A stretch of DNA of 64,000 nucleotides from Hesseltinella vesiculosa. Taxonomy: Eukaryota > Mucoromycota > Mucoromycetes > Mucorales > Cunninghamellaceae. Both the position numbers and the translations under genes were made by a program. Below the pieces are notes generated by a model. The model had not been told where the DNA came from and ran no database searches. It saw only the letters and a program-made list of their open reading frames with translations. Positions within the stretch are counted from its first letter, which is position 1. Each line of letters opens with the position of its first letter. The stretch lies in assembly GCA_002104935.1 (NCBI GenBank), contig MCGT01000018.1, forward strand, positions 310,001 through 374,000. Reading direction: 5' to 3'. This document shows positions 14,900 through 51,508 of this stretch, one piece after another.

Positions 14900-15935
14900 G
14901 TTTTTGCTTCATTGCACACCAGTGGGCGATCTGGCCGTATCTGTTTTGCTACGGAAGCTATGATTTTAAAATTGATATGTGAATATGTAGATAAGACCGA
15001 TCACCTTGCAGCAGATACTATCAATCATTGGATGGGAATGGATGGAACCCGAGCAGAAGACATCTTACCCATCTTCAAATCGCTTGCCAGGCAGACCGGC
15101 ACTCTGTGCTTCAACTGGTGCGAAGTACAGCATCGCGTTTGAGGAATCAGCGGAAAGCGATCTCGTGGCCGTCAGCTGCATCTGGTGAAAGAAGTATACA
15201 GAGGTAAATGTATGATAAGTGATCAGGAGCTTGCTAGTGACAATCGCTATCTCTCTAGAATTCACTCTCAAAAACTCTGCAGTCATGTCGAAATTTAGGA
15301 AACACGTCAAGGATGAATCGAAAGGATTTTTAACCATCGGATATATAAGAAAAGTCACCATCTTCGATCAGCCAAGACAACCGCAATTGCTTGCTTGAAT
15401 TGATGGCGAAGAAGATGAAAGCGAAATTGCTCTGTGAGAAGGTTTTCTGCAGTCACAACAGCTTGGCCTCCGAACCAATAATGAGCCGTGACACTGAACA
15501 TTGTCCCAGTTTAAAAGGCGTTGATGGGAGTACTCAAGGTGACAGTTAAGCAAAAAAAAAAAATTGATATGCTCAGTGTACTGAAGCGTTTGTTTGTCGC
15601 ATGCCAGTACAAAATGGTGATAAATGAACTCCCACTGACAGGGCAGGGAAGAACGAGGTGGCTGGCAAGCATGCACTAAAAATGATTTCGCACGCACTTG
15701 ATTTTACTTGTTCGCGCACGTAAATGATTCAGCAGTTCACCCGACTAGTTCAACAGTCATAACTTTTTTATTCAATCTTTGATATCCTATGTGACACTTG
15801 CAACGAAGAAAATCAGACTGGTAGCGATAGATTACGCTGGACTTTCAACCACCCCAGAAGACATCAGGCAATTTCTAAAAGTAGCCAAGAGGGTGAAGGA
15901 AGTAATCATCGACCATGGGCATAACCATTGAAACA
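14900..15935 (+). pseudogene. Decayed member of the Y-x-R-x-S (serine-recombinase-like) family
   Basis: Pieces align in order with the intact family member at 45209-46531: ILKLICEYVDKTDHLAADT (about 14962-15020), GYIRKV at 15339-15356 in place of GYARKS, then after a frameshift CLLELMAKKMKAKLLCEKVF, the SLKGVDGSTQGD block ending near 15543, and LVAIDYAGLSTTPEDIRQF (about 15818-15875). The catalytic-type Ser is lost (Val/Thr), the frame shifts just after the motif, and stops interrupt it. A fragment of the dispersed repeat (about 15597-15730) sits inside what would be the third intron. This is a relic rather than a functional gene. Confidence 0.7.
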
Positions 15936-22929: not shown

Positions 22930-23265
22930 CATTGGGGGCCTATGGAAGCAGTCATTGATGCGGGGAGAAGAATGACTGATAAAGCCATCATGCAGATCCT
23001 TGATAGAAACATTATTACACGCAGCTTTGACTCGATGCGGCCGACCAGAATTGCTCAATCGGATTGAGCTCAGGGGAATAGGTTGGAAGATGCATGTATC
23101 GATACCCACGATTCCTGATGAAGGTATCGATGGCCTTGGATTGATGAATTGGTGCATTGTCCATCGCCAAATAGCAGCCGTCAAATTCTGGATGTTGGTC
23201 CATAGTATTCATGACCTCATTCAAGAAGGCGATGTAGTGATGAGTGTTTGTGCCAATGCCAATGT
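22930..23265 (-). pseudogene. C-terminal remnant of a Tc1-like DDE transposase
   Basis: Reading down from about 23255: NTHHYIAFLNEVMNTMDQHP, then CYLAMDNAPIHQSKAIDTFI with the second catalytic Asp, RNRGYRYMHLPTYSPELNPI and EQFWS with the catalytic Glu. After EQFWS the frame shifts and the usual C-terminal tail resumes as KAACNNVSIKDLHDGFISHS. The N-terminal HTH region and first Asp are absent. It is therefore a broken 3' fragment, in the opposite orientation to the HTH-like gene of the inverted-arm element next to it. Confidence 0.75.
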
Positions 23266-23382
23266 GTTTGTAGGTTGTTCCCTGTTGGTGGAATTCTCAT
23301 GCTCGCGGGTTGAACCCTGGTTGTCGCTTTTTTTTGATCGCCGCCATCCCTTCCCTTTCCCTTTTTTTTCAACTCTCAACAC

Positions 23383-37494: not shown

Positions 37495-38394
37495 CACTGT
37501 TAAATCGGCCGTGATCAATAATGGAAAGAGGCGCAAAAAAAAAAGACGGTTTTTTCACTAGCCTATCCCAAGACCTGCGCACGGGCCCTGACAGCCCAAA
37601 AACCTCCACATTGCCTGCTTTCACTTCTTGAACCTTTCTCGCGCTCATCGCCCCTCCCTACGTTGCTTTTTACGTAAAATGTGAGCACAGACTGACCATT
37701 CTCTCCATTCCTCCTCCACGCCTCTGACTCGTTCATCGTCACCTATTTAATCATCAAAAAAAAAATTCATTCACCAATCCTTCGCGAGCTCAGTTTCCAT
37801 AGTTGTTACCTATACATAAAAGGATTTCAATTTAATGGTTTGTTTTCCATGATAATGGTAAAGGGGTGTGTCAAATAATAAAGGGTAAAAAGATGAGTGG
37901 CTGTTCCAGCCGTTGCCATAGCAATCTTTTTCTTCAGGGCGTTTTCCGGCTACCTTGGCACTTGCCTTTTTCTTTCATTTCCATTGCCTGCATCCAACAT
38001 ACTAAACCAGTTTGTGATGGACAGATGTGAGTCTGTCAAACTTTTGCTTTTCTATGCCTTCGCTTACCCGCCAATTCCAGGCATCCCTGGCTACCAGTGC
38101 CCCTTTTTTTAATTTTTTTTACCGTTCGATCAAGCTGGTGGTGCTGGCAGCCGGCACGGTTCAGCTGCATACAGTAAATGAGTCAAGAGGCACAAGCATG
38201 AGCATGCCCAAAAGGGTCATCTTTGCTCGTAACCTTTGCCTTGCTCCAACTTCACCTAGAGCATTGCTATTTTTCCTATCTGAGGAAAGACCGCCCGGGG
38301 CCACGTTTATAAAAATTTCCGTGGCAGTATACACGTTTCATTCAATAAATACGAAGTTGACTTCAAAAACATATCTACTTCTTCTCAAAACTTG
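37495..38394. other. Left margin of the large repeat island, no gene recognised
   Basis: After the JIP5 promoter, this stretch contains AT-rich sequence and a repeat segment (37770-37880) that also occurs, diverged, at 53975-54118. Small plus-strand frames at 37897-38395 show no recognised domain. Confidence 0.45.
37770..37880 (+). repeat. Dispersed repeat shared with 53975-54118
   Basis: Both stretches contain TTCACCAATCCTTC then GAGCTCAGTTTC, a variable middle, a CATGGTTT-like block, and GATAA followed by GGTGTGTGTCAAATA (one copy has GGGGTGTGTCAAATA). The rest is diverged and no coding is seen. Confidence 0.5.
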
Positions 38395-38612
38395 ACTTCT
38401 CTTGATAAATCTTCAGCATTGTATCGTGTAAACTTGTGAGGTTTGGTATGAATCACTCTGAGAGAAACCAAAACAGGGTCTGTTGGATCATCCATGTAAC
38501 AGATGTCGATGTCTTTCATATCATCAATTCTTTTTACAAGAATTGATTTATTGACTTCGTTGAATTCTTCACCATAGAACATACAAGCTGCCTGTTCTCG
38601 AGATATATTCAT
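38395..38612 (-). pseudogene. Truncated N-terminal copy of the Y-x-R-x-S family
   Basis: The frame starts at 38612 with MNISREQAACMFYGEEFNEV and continues NKSILVKRIDDMKDIDICYM, nearly identical to the start of the gene at 38895-40194. It ends after about 72 residues (NAEDLSREVKF) with no downstream exons on its 3' side. The 5' half (first about 50 residues) is very similar to its neighbour, so the duplication is recent. Confidence 0.6.
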
Positions 38613-38894: not shown

Positions 38895-40194
38895 TTATTT
38901 TGATCTTTGCACACAACTTTTCCTGCAAATAAAATTCTCCAATGCTTGTGGATCATTTAAAAGCTGATTTCTTTGGAACAGCTTGACTTCATGTTGGAAA
39001 GGGAGTTGATCAATAACAATCATTTTCAAGTTGCTATTATCTCTTTGAAAGTCATAAATGCATTCGTTAGCATATTCCTAAAAATTATCAAATAATATGT
39101 TCAACATCTTACTGAACAAAACTTCGAAGATCTTCAGCGTCGGTGGTAATCCCTGCAAAATCTAGCACGACCAGACAAACATTTTCTGTGGCTGCAATAA
39201 ATGAAATCAAATCTATAAAAATAGAGTTTTAGATAAATTTTATACAATATTATATTTTACAAGACCTTGAGTGTTTCCATCAACATTTTTTAGCCGTCTT
39301 GCAATGCCAACTTCGTTTGTGTCCCGTGCCGAGATTTTTTCTGACGCTGAGGAACTTGGTGACACAAACACTTTTTTTACCAAAGATCTTTTCGCAAGCC
39401 GCTCGACCATGTTTTGCAACAGTCGGATCCTGGTGTCTTCGTCTTCCTTTCCAATTGATTTTCTAGCATACCCAATGACTTGAAAGCCTTCTTTATGTAA
39501 GTTTCCAATGTATTCTTGGTAGCGAGGCAAATAGGTAGCGATGCTCTCAGCAACATTATCTATATGAAAAATTTGTGTAAATCTTTGCAATGAGTCCATA
39601 CTGTGTATTCTTTACCGATTAATTCACGTTTCATAGCGTATACGTTTCGAAATCCAATCTTTTCTTTTTGCCCTTTTGCCCTTTTCCTTGACACGGTTGC
39701 CTTGGTGAACTTGATTTTTCGTCGGAGACACCATTGCAAAAATGAATTGCTTGATTTGTCGTCAAAAAGAGAAGTGTATCGGGAAACAACAGCCAATATT
39801 TCATTCGTTGTCATACATTCCAAGCTGTATACCTCATCATTATGAGGGCTACATGCCAGAAAAGCTTCGTTCAAAAAAGTTATAATCATGGTGTCGGATG
39901 CTAAAAAAAACGTCAATTTCCCAAATCTCCAAATCTGGATTTGAACTTACTCAGTTGTGCCCTTGGCATTTCGTTTATGGGTTTCGTTTCGGGAATTGAT
40001 AAGTATTTGTGGTATCGAAATGGGTTTATGTTCATTTTGCGCTGCGACACAAGAACAGGATCTGTTTGGTCATCGATGTAACAGATATCGACGTCTTTTA
40101 TATCATCAATTCTTTTTACAAGAACTGATTTATTGATTTCGTTGAATTCTTCACCATAGAACATGCAAGCTGCTTGTTCTCGAGAAATATTCAT
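38895..40194 (-). CDS. Y-x-R-x-S (serine-recombinase-like) family protein, near-complete
   Basis: The start at 40194 (MNISREQAACMFYGEEFNEI) is set by alignment with three other family members. Order: N-terminal KRIDDIKDVDICYI, middle LAVVSRYTSLFDDKSSNSFL and ATVSRKRAKGQKEKIGFRNV, then EGFQVIGYARKSIGKEDEDT with Y-x-R-x-S, LVKKVFVSPSSSASEKISAR, NVDGNTQ, CLVVLDFAGITTDAEDLRSF, and the ending IVIDQLPFQHEVKLFQRNQL then CRKSCVQRSK at stop 38895. Splice joins around 39940/39900, 39615/39559 and 39261/39216 are in phase. The last join is not clean: CA-GTAAG to TAG-GAA shifts frame, and only a weak GTTCAG donor would keep it. Possibly just inactivated. Function is inferred from the motif only. Confidence 0.65.
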
Positions 40195-41886: not shown

Positions 41887-42125
41887 ATGACATCGCGCAA
41901 CATTGGACGACTATCTAACACCAAAATTCAGCGCTACATTGGAGGATACGATGTAGATGGAAACAACAACTTCCCAATGACGGAACCTCATCCACGATTG
42001 ATTCAAACCGACCCTGCTAGCCTCAGATGTCGCACCACTTGCCCAGTGTTTCGATTGCAAGTGCAAACGGCATCTACCCGAGTTTGAAGGACGTAGATGC
42101 TGGTACCGTACTTGCGTACACTGTG
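41887..42125 (+). pseudogene. Fragment of an unknown gene (MTSxN start), possibly with zinc-ribbon end
   Basis: MTSRNIGRLSNTKIQRYIGG begins at 41887; a diverged start MTSHNVTRLANASIMSN is at 53385. Both follow a 3' end of the C2H2-finger family. In another frame, about 42045-42140 reads CFDCKCKRHLPEFEGRRCW then YRTCVHCGSAT, a C-x2-C...C-x4-C-x2-C pattern like an RPA-type zinc ribbon, but it needs a frame change or intron. The fragment ends at the junction with the duplicated amine-oxidase sequence. Identity is uncertain. Confidence 0.35.
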
Positions 42126-42440
42126 GCTCTGCTACGGTTTGAATCATTTCGTGCATGTGGAAGATTTGTAAGTTCAACTGCGAACGTGACCTGCATTGGA
42201 TTGATTCTCTTTTCAAAATAGCCCCATCATGCCTGTCGAAACATGCTCGTTTACGCTGAAGCCCTTTGGGTTTTTCAACAAGAGTCCTGCCGTGGATGTA
42301 CCTCGAGCCACCATTCGGTACAACACCTTTGTCAACACTGACGATTGCGGCAACTCGATCAAGAGTGAGTGTTGTCGCTGACACTTCGCGCAAAATAAGA
42401 AATTTTTTCACTTGATGTTTTCTTTTTATCTTTTGCTTCG
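42126..42440 (+). pseudogene. Duplicated 3' end of the copper amine oxidase gene (copy 1)
   Basis: From GTGGCTCTGCTACGGTTTGA the sequence matches 50388-50700 almost base for base, including the last intron (GTAAGTTCA to CAAAATAG) and the final exon [15 protein letters not shown]...ECCR. The match continues into the 3' flank (TTTTTTCACTTGATGTTTTC). One coding change turns DESGNS into DDCGNS. No start or upstream exons are present, so it cannot make an enzyme. Confidence 0.85.
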
Positions 42441-42479
42441 GCGATGCAAAGTATGACGATCATTTCAGTACTTCATCTG

Positions 42480-42720
42480 CCATCTCTGTGCCAAATCCAA
42501 GGCGAATCGAAGGAAGTTGGGTTTCTATTGATTTTTGACCGTTTTGCCAGGCGGCCCCCTTGGATTTGAAAAAAAAAAAAAGAAAACGATATGGGGCATT
42601 GTTGAGTTAATGAGTCGATGTGACATTTTCCATGACAGTAAATTATTATGAAAGGCATGGATGCTGAAAAAATCAGGCTGATCGGTAGTGGTCGCCCAGC
42701 CAACTTGTGTTCGTTTACGT
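42480..42720 (+). repeat. Block shared with 51110-51350
   Basis: About 240 bp of strong similarity: GGCGAATCGAAGGAAGTTGG, TTTTGCCAGGCGG.CCCCCTT, GAAAACGATATGGGG, GAGTCGATGTG.CATTTTCC, TGAAAAAATCAGGCTGATCG and CCAGCCAACTTGTGTTCGTT. In the present copy it directly follows the amine-oxidase flank; at 50.7-51.1 kb about 370 bp of other sequence intervene. Confidence 0.85.
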
Positions 42721-42850
42721 TTATCCAATCGATGAATTCTGGGCGAAACTGAAGCATGTGGTGAACAAGGACACTTCTTCTGTTAGGAAGAAAGTGCAGC
42801 TCGACCAGCGGATTCGCGACGCCTCTTTGAAAATCAGTAGCAGAGACCCA
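42719..42850 (+). pseudogene. C-terminal remnant of a Tc1-like transposase
   Basis: YPIDEFWAKLKHVVNKD followed by QLDQRIRDASLKISSRD matches the NPIEEFWAKxK...RI..A...I end of Tc1-like DDE transposases, including the catalytic Glu (IDEFW). It lacks everything upstream and starts at the edge of the shared repeat block. The frame stays open to 42991 with no further recognisable sequence. Confidence 0.5.
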
Positions 42851-42989
42851 GAGACTGTCAAGGCTGGATTAGGCACTCCGAGCAGTTTTGGCAAAGATGT
42901 GTCAACTGTGAAAATATTTGTGAATAAAAAGTTGTTGGGTTCAAAGAAAAGCGGGAGGGTGTTCAAAAATCTTGAAGGCATCCGAAAAT

Positions 42990-43312: not shown

Positions 43313-44705
43313 TGGTTCATTTTTTTTTTTTTTGGCTGAACCGGTTCATTTTTTTGGCTGAACCGGTTCACTTTTTTGCTGAACCGGTTCATTTTTTGGC
43401 TGAACCGGTTCACTTTTTTGGCTGAACCGGTTCATTTTTTTGGCTGAACCGGTTCACTTTTTTGCTGAACCGGGTCACTTTTTTGGCTGAACCGGTTCAT
43501 TTTTTGGCTGAACCGGTTCACTTTTTTGCTGAACCGGTTCACTTTTTTGGCTGAACCGGGTCACTTTTTTGCTGAACCGGTTCATTTTTTGGCTGAACCG
43601 GTTCACTTTTTTGGCTGAACCGGTTCATTTTTTTGGCTGAACCGGTTCACTTTTTTGCTGAACCGGTTCACTTTTTTAGCTGAACCGGGTCACTTTTTTG
43701 CTGAACCGGTTCATTTTTTGGCTGAACCGGTTCACTTTTTTGGCTGAACCGGTTCATTTTTTTGGCTGAACCGGTTCACTTTTTTGCTGAACCGGTTCAT
43801 TTTTTGGCTGAACCGGTTCACTTTTTTGCTGAACCGGTTCACTTTTTTAGCTGAACCGGGTCACTTTTTTGCTGAACCGGGTCACTTTTTTGGCTGAACC
43901 GGGTCACTTTTTTGCTGAACCGGGTCACTTTTTTAGCTGAACCGGTTCATTTTTTGGCTGAACCGGTTCACTTTTTTGCTGAACCGGTTCACTTTTTTAG
44001 CTGAACCGGGTCACTTTTTTGCTGAACCGGTTCACTTTTTTGCTGAACCGGGTCACTTTTTTAGCTGAACCGGTTCACTTTTTTAGCTGAACCGGTTCAT
44101 ATTTTAGCTGAACCGGTTCACTTTTTTAGCTGAACCGGTTCATATTTTAGCTGAACCGGTTCACTTTTTTGGCTGAACCGGGTCACTTTTTTGGCTGAAC
44201 CGGGTCACTTTTTTGCTGAACCGGGTCACTTTTTTAGCTGAACCGGGTCACTTTTTTAGCTGAACCGGTTCATATTTTAGCTGAACCGGTTCACTTTTTT
44301 GGCTGAACCGGGTCACTTTTTTGCTGAACCGGTTCATTTTTTGGCTGAACCGGTTCACTTTTTTGGCTGAACCGGTTCATTTTTTTGGCTGAACCGGTTC
44401 ACTTTTTTGCTGAACCGGTTCACTTTTTTAGCTGAACCGGGTCACTTTTTTGCTGAACCGGTTCACTTTTTTGCTGAACCGGTTCACTTTTTTGGCTGAA
44501 CCGGTTCATTTTTTTGGCTGAACCGGTTCACTTTTTTGCTGAACCGGTTCACTTTTTTAGCTGAACCGGTTCACTTTTTTGCTGAACCGGTTCACTTTTT
44601 TGCTGAACCGGGTCACTTTTTTAGCTGAACCGGGTCACTTTTTTGCTGAACCGGTTCACTTTTTTGCTGAACCGGGTCACTTTTTTAGCTGAACCGGTTC
44701 ATTTT
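43313..44705 (+). repeat. 64-unit array of the palindrome TGAACCGGTTCA
   Basis: I counted 64 full units starting at 43334 and ending with the one at 44687, mean period about 21.5 bp (20-22 bp). Each is (G/A/-)GCTGAACCGGTTCA or GCTGAACCGGGTCA, then (C/T/TA)TTTTTT. TGAACCGGTTCA is its own reverse complement; the GGGTCA variant breaks it by one base. Spacing varies mostly by presence of an extra G or A before GCTGAA. The array ends 23 bp before the ATG at 44728. The core AACCGGTT is the Grainyhead/CP2 family consensus. There are no unique spacers, so it is not a CRISPR-like array. Confidence 0.98.
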
Positions 44706-44727: not shown

Positions 44728-44964
44728 ATGGAAGTCACGCGTGAACAAGCCGTTTGCATGTTCTATTGCAAAGAATTCAGCAAAGTAAATGTCGATGGAC
44801 TCCTGAAACGAATAGATGATCTGAAAGATTTGGATATTTGCTTCGAAACAGATCCTCTGAAGCCGGCGTTAGTTCATGTAGAGAAGATCTTTGCTGAACC
44901 TCAACATTACAAGAGATACAAGTCTTGGGCAGAGGTATATGGCCTCTCATCCTTGGAAAAGTAG
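44728..44964 (+). pseudogene. N-terminal Y-x-R-x-S family copy downstream of the palindrome array
   Basis: MEVTREQAVCMFYCKEFSKV at 44728, then GLLKRIDDLKDLDICFETDP, aligns with the first exon of the genes at 40194 and 46531. It stays open for 78 residues to LSSLEK at 44964. Downstream exons with GYARKS are absent; instead the 3' end of the convergent family gene lies at 45209. It may yield a short N-domain protein or be a truncated remnant. Its start codon is 23 bp from the last palindrome, making it the obvious candidate target of that array. Confidence 0.55.
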
Positions 44965-45208: not shown

Positions 45209-46531
45209 TTACATTTCTTTCGATCGTCGTAGTGCCTTTTCTCGGCAATCGAAACTAGACAAGATGGAAGCGTCGCTCAAGATTTGGTCCCTTTCAAAGA
45301 TTTTGGTTTCGTTTAGATAGGGTAGTTGGTCTACCACCAGTCTCAAAAGTGACTGGTGGTTGCTATATATCAAGGTTTAATTATGTCAGGAGAAGATATA
45401 CAGTGACCCGTCTATTTTGTCTTCTCAATTTCCCTGAAGTTACCTGACAAATGAGTACAGATCATTGGGATCTGTACTCAAGCCTGCAAAATCAATGCAG
45501 ACCAGACACACCTTGGTTTCCGAAGATAAAAAGCGGATCAAATCTATAAAATAAACTTAGCTACCACCACTTCATTTGAAGCCATAGGTACCTTGTGTGT
45601 TACCATCAACACCTTTCAAGTCAACGTTTCCAGTCTTCACATCCCTTGATCCAAGTGGGGATGATGCTTTACAGCATGACGATACAAAACACTTGTTCAC
45701 AAGAGATCGCATTTTCAAATGCTTCACCATGCTTTCCAAATTTTTTTCCCGGTGACTTTCGTTGCCAGGTGATTTGCGAGCATACCCGACAATACAATAC
45801 CCATCATCTTTGAGCATCCTTATGTGTTGTTGATACGTCGGCAAACGATTCAAAATGTCTTTAACCGTATTATCTACAGTATAAGTGAACCGAGCAAGAG
45901 GCAATGAGCATATCCTTGAACCATATGACATTTTCAACTTACCAAGATATTGAATTTTCAACACAAAAACTTCTCGAAGTCGAGAATTAACACCATAACG
46001 TCGTTTTCTTGATAATGTTGCATTCATGAATTGAATTTTGTTGGTCTTGCACCAGCTAGTGAAACTAAGAAGAGACTTGTCATCAAACTTGTTGGTGTAT
46101 TTAAGGATTGTTGTATAAACATCTTTTGAAGAAATTGTTTTTTTTTCGTAGCAATCATTAGCCTCCAAGAACTGATCAGTTGCGAAGGCGATATTCAGGA
46201 ATTGGATAATTTGTGAATCAGAATCTACCGGTGGCAAATACAGCGAAGAGTTAAATGACGCCGCTTCTAGATCATATGAATGCTTACACAGTTTTTCTGT
46301 GGGCTCGCTTTCTTCAAGTGTTTGGTCTTCATCAAGATACAATTTATATGTGAAAGGATCGAAATATATTCTTGACTTTGTGACGAGTATTGGCCTTTCA
46401 GGTGAAGTCTCGAAGCAGATTTCAAGATCGTCATTGTACGAGTCCAAGCGTTCTTCCAGGCCTTTTGCAATTTCTTCTGAAAAAGGTTTGCCATAAAAAA
46501 CGCATAATGCTTTCTTCCGTGTGATGGTCAT
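45209..46531 (-). CDS. Y-x-R-x-S (serine-recombinase-like) family protein, intact copy
   Basis: Four exons join in phase: 46531-45943, 45873-45592, 45543-45444 and 45362-45209, giving 374 residues without stops. Layout: N-terminal domain MTITRKKALCVFYGKPFSEE with LEICFETSPERPILV (1-60); middle with TTILKYTNKFDDKSLLSFTS and MNATLSRKRRYGVNSRLREV (about 130-195); YCIVGYARKSPGNESHREKN with Y-x-R-x-S (about 220-240); LVNKCFVSSCCKASSPLGSR; LKGVDGNTQ; CLVCIDFAGLSTDPNDLYSF; and ending LRLVVDQLPYLNETKIF with FDCREKALRRSKEM. The YARKS pattern is that of IS607/resolvase nucleophile motifs, but the rest of the fold was not verified. I recall the family as common in Mucorales genomes; its role is unknown. 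Confidence 0.75.
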
Positions 46532-46590
46532 ACTGGTTCAGCAGAAAAAAGAGAAGTGGTTCAACGGGAAAAAAAGCGATTCAGCCAAAA
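46532..46590 (-). promoter_or_regulatory. Three degenerate palindrome-type units before the intact family gene
   Basis: Reading toward the ATG on the minus strand: GGCTGAATCGC plus T run, GTTGAACCACTTC plus T run, and GCTGAACCAGT abutting the ATG. The TGAA cores are 20 and 23 bp apart, the same period as the large array (mean 21.5). The units are imperfect, but the layout is the same. Confidence 0.6.
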
Positions 46591-48312
46591 AAAAAATGCA
46601 GGGCGGGGTTTTTATTCGCTGACACTTCGTTGAGCGCTGACCGTGTGCCAATCATCTTTTTCTCACATCTCCTTCAACACTGGCCCCCTTGGTCTCGCTC
46701 CAAGAGCATTTGACAGGATGCAACAGCTGGGTCTAGCGATTACAGCAATGCATGGCGTCCTATTGATTTTTGAAAATAGATTTTTAATAAACTAGTAGGA
46801 GAACCTTAAGATTCCTTGAAGCAACATGCTGATTAAAAAGTAGGCTTAGGGTTTAAATTGTAAGCGCAGGCTCAATGCTATGTTTTCTATGTGATGGAGA
46901 GTAGGAGGTTAGGTGATTGACTTGTCAACGAAGACGCAGTTATGCATAAAGTTGACACCAGCCTTCAGCCAAGGTTGAATAGCATCCTTGCATTTGGCGC
47001 TGGTGTCATTGCGGCTTCGTGGATAGTAATGATAGGTCGTAAGTGAGGATTTTCATGTACTTTTTCATAGATAGTTGCAAGTCACTGGTCGTTGGATGAC
47101 AAAGATAAAAAGAAGTAGATTAGGTGTCCGTTGGAAAAGGCAAGACCCAGAAAAAAAAAAAAACTGCGCGGAAATTGAATATGGCACTCTCTTCGTTCGT
47201 AAAAAAAAAAAAAAAAAAAGCAGAACACTGCACAGCACTTTTGGGTGATCAGATCAATGTGAAATTATGCCAAAGTGCCCAAACCAATGAATGAGGATGA
47301 TCCTGAAAAAATTGCGTTGATGGATGAAAATCGCTCAGCCAACTTTTGATCACGTTCGTTTTGACATCTCCGATCCGCCAGCTAAAAAAATAAAAAAATC
47401 GGCCATTTTCATCAGGGAACCCCCAGGCCATCTGATCAAAAATCACAGCGCAAAATTGATCTAAATAATTTCCCCCTAAATTTTCCATGCTAGTACAAAA
47501 TGGTGAGAAATGACATTTGTTAAAATTACAACTCTCTTAGGCAGCGCAGGGAAGAACGACTAGGCTGGCAAACATGCACTTGAAAGAAAATTTCAGCGGT
47601 TTGTCTGATTGGGTCACCAGTCAAAACTATTTTTTCACATCTCAAAGAAGGTATGACCAACATATTAACCACAGTTGAACGGGTTCCATGACAGACTCTC
47701 CCTCACATGCTCTATTTCATCATTTTACCGCCAAAGAAACATACGACTTCCAAATCTCCTCCCCAACCTTCAGTCTTTATCTAAAAAGGTCATTCGATCA
47801 CAAGATCCTAAGATAGATGGGGCGAAAGTGGTCATGTTCAGCCAATGAGAGCCCAACACCAGTCTCTATGGGCGATAGAAGCCACAGAATGAGGAGCTAG
47901 AATGGCGACACTTTGGCAGGGAGGTAAAGTCCCCAACCGCACCAGGTCCATTCATTTCCGTGGGTAAATTTACATGGTCAACTTTTGGCGCATGGGTTTT
48001 TTTTTTCTGATGCCTTTGTCCTGATTTCTTTAACCGTCAAGGTATCCCTTTATTTTATCAAGCTCCGTCTTTTGAATCTATCTAAAAAGAGAAAAACGCC
48101 TGTGGAAGAAGGATGTATGCAGAGGCGCACCAAAAAATAGAAGTAAGCGTCCAACGTTTCCGGAGAAAGTTTGTCTCACTGCGTGTGACAAACATTGTCT
48201 GATTGGCTGACATTGCTGTTTTATTGATATCGAGACCCCGTTTTATTTTATCTTACCACGGCATTGGGATCGGCGTCTTGTCACTGTGTCCCTTTGGTTC
48301 AAACGCTTTACC
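46591..48312. other. Repeat-island interval without a recognisable gene
   Basis: About 1.7 kb. It contains the fullest copy of the dispersed repeat (47230-47610), A runs at 47151-47163 and 47200-47219, and otherwise AT-rich sequence. The right end is the amine oxidase promoter. Minus-strand frame 47249-47488 lies inside the repeat and is not a gene. Confidence 0.5.
47230..47610 (+). repeat. Dispersed repeat, most complete copy (B)
   Basis: This copy joins the left half seen at 14610-14850 and the right half seen at 15597-15730 and 16290-16400 in one stretch. Blocks: CACTTTTGGGTGATCAGATC, CAGCCAACTTTTGATC, GACATCTCCGATC, TCGGCCATTTTCATCAGGGA, AGTACAAAATGGTGAGAAAT, CAGGGAAGAACGA and GGCTGGCAAACATGCACTTG. 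No terminal repeats were identified. Confidence 0.55.
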
Positions 48313-49698: not shown

Positions 49699-50642
49699 AG
49701 CAAGCCTGAAACAGTCATTTCACTTTCCATTTTCAAAAGTTTGCAACGGCTGCCAACTATGACTATGGATTCTATTATTATCTATATCAAGATGGATCGA
49801 TCCAATTTGAAGTCAAGGCGACCGGTGAGCTGAATACGCATGTGCTTGCGGAGGACGAAGACCCTCGACCCTACGGCACGATTGTGTCAAAGAATGTGGT
49901 TGGACAGCACCATCAGCACCTGTTCATGGCACGCTGTGATGCCATGATTGATGGCCTGGACAACACAGTCACGCAAGTGGATATCGTGCCTAGCCCGCTG
50001 CCCATGGGTCACCCCGACAACGAGCTGGGCAATGTGTTCTACCCAGAGCACACAGTCTTGGAAGACACTGAGCAGGCCAAGACCAGCGTGGACAGCAGCA
50101 AGGGCCGGTCGTGGCTGATTACCAATGAAAACAAAAAGCACCCGTTCACCCTGGAAAGCGTGGCCTATCGGCTCTCGACCAACACTGCACCAACGATGCT
50201 TGCGCAGCCAGGCTCGGTGGTGGCTACGCGTGGCGCTTTCGCTCGCCATAACCTGTGGGTGACCCCCTACCATCCTGATCAGCGCTTTGCGTCAGGGCTT
50301 TACTGCAACCAAACCGAGGAAGAAACTGGCCTGCCCCTCTACACCAAGGAGAAACTACCCATCCGCAACAAGGACATTGTGCTGTGGCTCTGCTACGGTT
50401 TGAATCATTTCGTGCGCGTGGAAGATTTGTAAGTTCAGGTGCGAACGTGACCTGCATTGGATTGACTCTCTTTTTAAAAAAGCCCCATCATGCCTGTCGA
50501 AACATGCTCGTTTACGCTGAAGCCCTTTGGATTTTTCGACAAGAGTCCTGCTGTGGATGTACCTCGAGCCACCATTCGGTATAACACCTTTGTCAACACT
50601 GACGAAAGCGGCAACTCGATCAAGAACGAGTGTTGTCGCTGA
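48395..50642 (+). CDS. Copper amine oxidase
   Basis: Oxidises primary amines to aldehydes, NH3 and H2O2 using Cu and a topaquinone cofactor. The start at 48395 gives MVQSLHPLTPLSPQEIKQAS (N2 domain). Exons follow with YHKTIKGRRLMQGLVYYRKH, then the catalytic domain: FHIGFNYREGVVLQTVSYQD, YNRKMALDHGEM with the catalytic-base Asp region, CSCLGHIYYIDAVVVDEHG, the topaquinone motif TANYDYG, copper ligands in VGQHHQHLFMARCD, and the third ligand His in WVTPYHPDQRFASG. The final exon is [20 protein letters not shown] to ECCR at 50642. Five introns; one has about 27 A (49670-49696). No SKL-type peroxisomal signal ends the protein. Two more copies of the last exons lie nearby at 42.1 and 54.5 kb. Confidence 0.95.
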
Positions 50643-51508
50643 CACTTTCTCGCGCAAAATAAAAGAAATTTTTTCACTTGATGTTTTCTTTTTATTTTTT
50701 GCTTCCGCGATGCAAAGTATGACGATAATGCCAGTACTTCATCATTAAGCTAATGACTATCCCTCATTTTTGAATAGCATGGAAGGCATAGGTGCCAAGG
50801 ATAGCCTCACCCATAAGAGCGCCAAAATTGTCAGCAGAGCGAGAAAAAAAAAAAAGAAAAAAAAGCAGTGAGCTTAGGGACGCTTTCTGGAGAGGTAAAA
50901 AAAGTGTTGATTAAAATTGAAACAGAGTCTAGATTGCTTGATGATGCAGAAAAACCCAGCATGCTGTGACTCTTTGTGGTCTCGTTGATGCATGAAAATA
51001 GCACCTTTTGCCCCTTTTGTGCCTGAGAGATTCCAATTGAATGTCTCTAGATCTGTACCACGTCATTTAGAAGGTAGGTCATGTTTACCGTGGTCATTGG
51101 AAATCATATGCCTTCTGTGTGCGAAATTTAAGGCGAATCGAAGGAAGTTGGGTTTCTGTTGATTTTTGATCATTTTGCCAGGCGGTCCCCCTTGGATTGG
51201 AAAAAAAAAAGAAAACGATATGGGGTCTTGTTGAGTCAATGAGTCGATGTGGCATTTTCCATTACAGTAAATTATTATGAAAGGTATGTATGCTGAAAAA
51301 ATCAGGCTGATCGGTAGTGGCCACCCAGCCAACTTGTGTTCGTTTACGTTTTGAGGCCTCCATTTTGCCAGCCAACAAACGGCGAAAAAAGCGAAAAAAA
51401 AATCCGCAGCGACCATTTGATCTCCGCCGGTTGAGCCTGCAGCAGTTGCAAAAACGGGCTGCGTTTTCTTTTCTCATTTTTTTTTTTTTTCGTTCAGTGT
51501 TTGGCAAA
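50643..51508. repeat. Amine oxidase 3' flank and shared repeat block
   Basis: 50643-50760 is the 3' flank that is also duplicated at 42380-42475. 51110-51350 is the counterpart of the block at 42480-42720. Between them (50760-51110) is AT-rich sequence with no gene. 51350-51508 leads to the C2H2-finger gene and includes a long T run. Confidence 0.7.

What the first reader, a model, noticed from the sequence alone, without database searches (positions are those of the whole stretch)
43313..44705. 64-copy array of a perfect 12-bp palindrome with Grainyhead/CP2-type core, two-helical-turn spacing
Direct count gives 64 units with mean spacing about 21.5 bp, close to two turns of B-DNA (21 bp), so every TGAACCGGTTCA palindrome faces the same side of the helix. 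The core AACCGGTT equals the known consensus of Grainyhead/CP2 factors, which are conserved in fungi. Units fall in two classes, GGTTCA (symmetric) and GGGTCA (half-broken), mixed along the array, as if one half-site were under different selection. The T run between units adds a stiff, nucleosome-poor linker. This looks like a large dimer-binding platform or recombination-site bank rather than ordinary satellite DNA.
Basis: partly seen in the sequence, partly recalled or inferred. Interest (0 to 1): 0.92.

Follow-up and report, generated by a model that had tools for sequence, protein, structure and literature searches.

The report
Repeat array inside fungal transposon
The 64-copy repeat array is real and most likely belongs to a worn-out mobile element of a soil fungus that also carries genes for a recombinase-shaped protein; what the array does is still a guess.

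Summary
The array is real: 64 units at 43337-44701, 46 perfect TGAACCGGTTCA and 18 TGAACCGGGTCA, spaced 21 or 22 bp; the perfect form occurs nowhere else in the 27-Mb genome. It ends 26 bp before the start of a 78-aa minigene, which faces a full 'GYARKS' gene that has about three worn, inverted units before its own start. The genome holds about 60 GYARKS clusters; 10 of 22 segments around them carry arrays, mostly with different units, against none in six control segments. Better-kept relatives are palindromes with a DDE transposase in both inverted arms and the GYARKS pair plus array between them; one has TA-flanked ends and 100% identical arms. The GYARKS protein ends in a predicted serine-recombinase fold with R8, S10 and D67 kept but R68 and R71 replaced. 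Best reading: the array is a many-site platform for the element's own proteins. Membership in an element is well supported by relatives, though the window's arms are only relics; binding is inference. Grainyhead binding, exact helical phasing and half-site selection are not supported.

The parts
42716..42912 (+). Relic of the C-terminal part of a DDE transposase (left arm), coding toward the array
   Evidence: tblastn with the C26 DDE end, two pieces with a frame change, E 6e-9; Pfam DDE_3 does not find it
43337..44701 (+). Array of 64 units TGAACCGG[T/G]TCA with T-rich linkers
44728..44964 (+). Minigene, 78 aa: N-terminal domain of the GYARKS family alone
   Evidence: model pLDDT 89.9
45212..46531 (-). 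GYARKS gene D, spliced product P0001 (353 aa): N-domain, winged-helix-like middle, serine-recombinase-fold end
46532..46596 (-). About three worn units of the same repeat, inverted, directly before gene D
   Evidence: 79% match to 43324-43388, E 2e-5
46918..46986 (-). Possible relic of a DDE transposase (right arm), 23 residues
   Evidence: tblastn E 0.01 only
38898..40194 (-). Second GYARKS gene, B
   Evidence: L022
40297..41631 (-). Array of a different 10-12 bp unit, 102 bp before the ATG of gene B
38385..38612 (-). Minigene A, downstream of gene B on the same strand
   Evidence: 88% to exon 1 of B

Best explanation
The array is part of a decayed mobile element in Hesseltinella vesiculosa. 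Better-kept relatives are palindromes: a Tc1/IS630-type DDE transposase gene in each inverted arm and, between the arms, tandem arrays plus two genes, a GYARKS gene (N-terminal domain, winged-helix-like middle, serine-recombinase-fold end) and a minigene that repeats only its N-terminal domain; the cleanest one is flanked by TA with CAGTG ends. In the window the arms are relics while array, minigene and GYARKS gene remain. Shown: the array, its genes, the family-wide link, the arms and ends of relatives, the predicted fold. Inferred: the array is a many-site platform bound by the element's own GYARKS and minigene proteins, which sets expression of the pair and may bring the two arms together; each lineage has its own unit; unit number grows by segmental duplication.
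Confidence: 0.55

Rival explanations
1. The arrays are recombination sites: the GYARKS protein is an active serine recombinase that cuts and joins at array units and resolves or inverts the element's centre, as TnpR does at res in Tn3.
For: Serine-recombinase fold; R208 in 23 of 23, S210 in 21 of 23, D287 in 22 of 23 rows; DDE transposase in the same element; the minigene/gene pair is tail-to-tail in C18 and the window but head-to-head in C1.
Against: The positions of R68 and R71 hold F/Y and L/I/F in 23 of 23 rows, and these arginines are needed in known enzymes (recalled); Pfam finds no resolvase; most units are not palindromic.
Confidence: 0.15
2. The array is a minisatellite that happened to grow by slippage or unequal exchange in a transposon's non-coding part and has no function.
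For: Block-like recurrence of unit types; unit sequence differs between loci; many family loci lack arrays; arrays also lie in places other than promoters.
Against: Arrays recur at this family in 10 of 22 segments against none in controls, often at both ends in inverted orientation, and 63 of the 64 steps' cores vary at one column only while linkers vary more.
Confidence: 0.25
3. A host Grainyhead/CP2 factor binds the array and drives the minigene.
For: Core AACCGGTT equals the CP2/Grainyhead consensus (recalled); CP2 domains are encoded in the genome.
Against: The 12-mer is found only in this array; sister arrays in the same position have unrelated units.
Confidence: 0.05

Closest known systems
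Tc1/mariner-IS630 DDE transposons
   Same: DDE_3 transposase with HTH, TA target, CAGTG ends
   Different: A transposase gene in each of two long inverted arms, and a GYARKS pair with arrays between them
Foldback elements (recalled)
   Same: Long inverted arms containing short tandem repeats (C18)
   Different: Arms also hold transposase genes, and the centre is coding
IS607 TnpA (PMC6188088, abstract and passages)
   Same: DNA-binding part before the serine-recombinase domain; ends with repeated motifs, helically phased in IS1535
   Different: IS607 has no terminal inverted repeats or target duplications; here a DDE transposase and TA ends; two active-site arginines replaced
Tn3 with TnpR and res (recalled)
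   Same: DDE transposase together with a serine-recombinase-type gene
   Different: Other DDE family, TA target, palindromic arms, activity of the recombinase-like protein unknown

Membership tests
Serine recombinase superfamily (GYARKS protein) | catalytic-domain fold | tested here: met
Serine recombinase superfamily (GYARKS protein) | YxRxS with R8 and nucleophile S10 (numbering recalled) | tested here: met
   R208 23/23, S210 21/23 rows; GYaRKS aligned with GYARVS of gamma-delta resolvase, E 0.6
Serine recombinase superfamily (GYARKS protein) | active-site R68 and R71 | tested here: not met
   F/Y and L/I/F in 23/23 rows; register inferred from the strand before D287
Serine recombinase superfamily (GYARKS protein) | recognised by Pfam profile | tested here: not met
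   no resolvase among matches at E 1 for the window pieces or 12 members
Tc1/mariner-IS630 element (relatives) | DDE_3 transposase | tested here: met
   L038 frame, E 6.8e-30; pairs in C18, C1, C27
Tc1/mariner-IS630 element (relatives) | TA target duplication and inverted ends | tested here: met
   C1 and C27 ends; ends of C18 not found
Tc1/mariner-IS630 element (window copy) | DDE transposase and ends | tested here: inconclusive
   relics at E 6e-9 and 0.01, no ends identified
Foldback element | long inverted arms of tandem repeats | tested here: met
   C18 arrays of 2.5 and 2.2 kb; in the window 64 units against about 3
IS607 family | no terminal inverted repeats | tested here: not met
   inverted arms in relatives
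RFX-type winged helix (middle domain) | fold | tested here: inconclusive
Grainyhead/CP2 binding array | binding by CP2 protein | not testable with these tools
   CP2 domains exist
Dispersed satellite DNA | same unit at many unlinked places | tested here: not met
   46 of 46 perfect 12-mers in this array; variant 18 here, 1 elsewhere

The most novel reading that the evidence does not exclude
A eukaryotic counterpart of Tn3: palindromic TA-inserting DDE transposons of Mucorales that carry a recombinase-fold gene with a rebuilt active site, a small N-domain partner that competes with it, and a fast-changing array of cognate sites at which the protein pairs the two arms and resolves or flips the element's centre, each lineage with its private site and matching protein.
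Probability: 0.15. Interest if true: 0.92.

Novelty: new variant of a known kind. Interest (0 to 1): 0.7.

Why it matters
It ties an orphan, many-copy protein family found in 12 fungal genera to a fold and to a mobile element, and offers a natural series of protein and repeat-array pairs in which changes of DNA-binding specificity could be followed. If the altered recombinase is active, a serine-type recombinase would be working inside a eukaryotic DDE transposon.

Tried and rejected

Corrections to my notes: a notebook entry says 11 of 22 segments with arrays; one search shows 10 of 22 at score 100 and 9 of 22 at 150. One of the 10 (C7, score 116) is weak. C6 and C26 are copies of one element, so 9 of 21 are independent at score 100.

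Full report
What was claimed and what is there. A direct count gives 64 cores from 43337 to 44701, 46 perfect TGAACCGGTTCA and 18 TGAACCGGGTCA, with steps of 21 (33) and 22 (30) bp. The perfect 12-mer occurs 46 times in the 27.05-Mb genome, each time in this array; the variant occurs 18 times here and once elsewhere. Unit types recur in blocks, so the array seems to have grown by duplication of several units at once, and the half-broken class is one T-to-G change carried along. Phase coherence is high at 10.75 bp per turn and absent at 10.5.

Whose genome. The database match of gene D is P0001, named as Hesseltinella vesiculosa, on a contig of 485,700 bases, the length of C10 on which the window lies. 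P0002, P0013 and P0026, of the same species, sit on contigs of 384,303, 571,097 and 1,790,259 bases, the lengths of C18, C6 and C1. The species name rests on that.

The genes beside it. The array stops 26 bp before the ATG of a 78-aa minigene (44728-44964, +), which matches the N-terminal domain of the GYARKS family alone. Gene D faces it from the other strand (46531 to 45212). Directly before gene D's ATG are about three worn units of the same repeat, inverted (43324-43388 x 46596-46532, 79%). A second GYARKS gene, B, has a different 10-bp array 102 bp before its ATG; its minigene lies downstream on the same strand. These two are the only arrays in the window with period 6 or more and TRF score 100 or more.

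The family. Gene D finds 101 matched stretches in the genome, in 60 clusters by my grouping. The loci brought in by that search, merged to 22 segments (80 kb, without the array's own element), hold arrays in 10 at score 100 or more and 9 at 150 or more; six 6-kb control segments, picked by me at round coordinates on six contigs, hold none. C6 and C26 are copies, so 9 of 21 are independent. The same unit stands at both ends in inverted orientation in C18 (2.5 and 2.2 kb), in C6 and C26 and around the gene in C61. C85 has a 20-bp, roughly 50-copy array with an AAAAGCTTTT palindrome, ending about 65 bp before a GYARKS start. Many short periods are 9 to 12 or 19 to 22 bp, one or two helical turns; I noticed this after the fact, and C7 (18), C11 (53 and 225) and a 61-bp array beside C26 do not fit.

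The larger element. Beyond the C18 arrays lies an 822-bp inverted repeat, 821 identical, coding for the end of a DDE transposase that runs toward the array on both sides; the right arm has a 411-aa frame with DDE_3 at E 6.8e-30 and weak HTH matches just under their cut-offs. A genome search for DDE_3 gave 164 hits, 150 of them printed. Of the eight best, six form three inverted pairs: around GYARKS pairs in C18 and C1, and around other cargo in C27; the other two (C45, C54) were not examined. 14 of 60 GYARKS clusters lie within 5 kb of a printed hit, 3.0 expected under uniform placement, P about 1e-6. In C1 (L046) the arms are 1648 bp and 100% identical, each with a 498-aa DDE frame; the ends read TA|CAGTGAATCC on both sides; the centre has an array, the minigene and an uninterrupted GYARKS frame. 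C27 (L047) has arms of 2125 bp, 98% identical, ends TA|CAGTGCTTCC, and no match to P0001 or the exon-1 queries in its centre. The window copy has a left DDE relic facing the array (42716-42912, E 6e-9) and a possible right one (46918-46986, E 0.01); Pfam does not see the left relic. I read it as a decayed member.

How it most likely works. The DDE transposase would move the element, as in its family; ends and arms are shown here, movement is not. The GYARKS protein and its minigene partner are DNA-binding candidates, and the array before the start codon is the likely platform. Shown are position, repetition and the family-wide link; binding, its effect on transcription and any pairing of arms are inference. 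IS607 TnpA has a DNA-binding part before a serine-recombinase domain and binds repeated, helically phased motifs (PMC6188088, abstract and passages), so such a layout can work; IS607 lacks inverted ends and a DDE gene, so this is likeness, not membership.

Results against. 12 of 22 segments have no array at score 100. Arrays in C1:941k and C1:1.70M are not before a start codon. Ten of 12 tested units are not palindromic beyond shuffles. The window's arms are nearly gone. The DDE link could in part reflect shared transposon-rich regions, though that would not give inverted identical arms around the pair.

Novelty. Nine literature searches listed nothing on such an element. The array alone is a repeat inside a transposon; the palindromic DDE element with a recombinase-fold gene family and diverging arrays is a new variant of a known kind.

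Noticed in passing
window 42121-42722 and 50382-51351: Duplicated stretch (93% and 91%) that by eye includes the end of an amine-oxidase-like gene; the left copy ends where the DDE relic begins.
   Followed up: partly
window 23027-23287: Another DDE transposase relic, minus strand.
   Followed up: no
C11:344160-345490 (L044, L023): Array of a 225-bp unit, six copies, each with a copy of the start of GYARKS exon 1.
   Followed up: partly
L047 (C27:121800-131200): Palindromic DDE element of the same kind with other cargo, including frames with C2H2-like motifs by eye, and a short array in both arms.
   Followed up: partly
P0019 (Parasitella parasitica): Annotated protein with a Tc1-like HTH region (HTH_29 under its cut-off) before a GYARKS domain; may be a fused gene model or a nested element.
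   Followed up: no
window 15343-15543: Fragment of a GYARKS recombinase-domain exon, plus strand, with one stop.
   Followed up: no
C9, C61 and window A/B gene-minigene pairs: Gene and minigene are nearly alike up to about codon 50 and then differ sharply, as if gene conversion kept the first part alike.
   Followed up: partly
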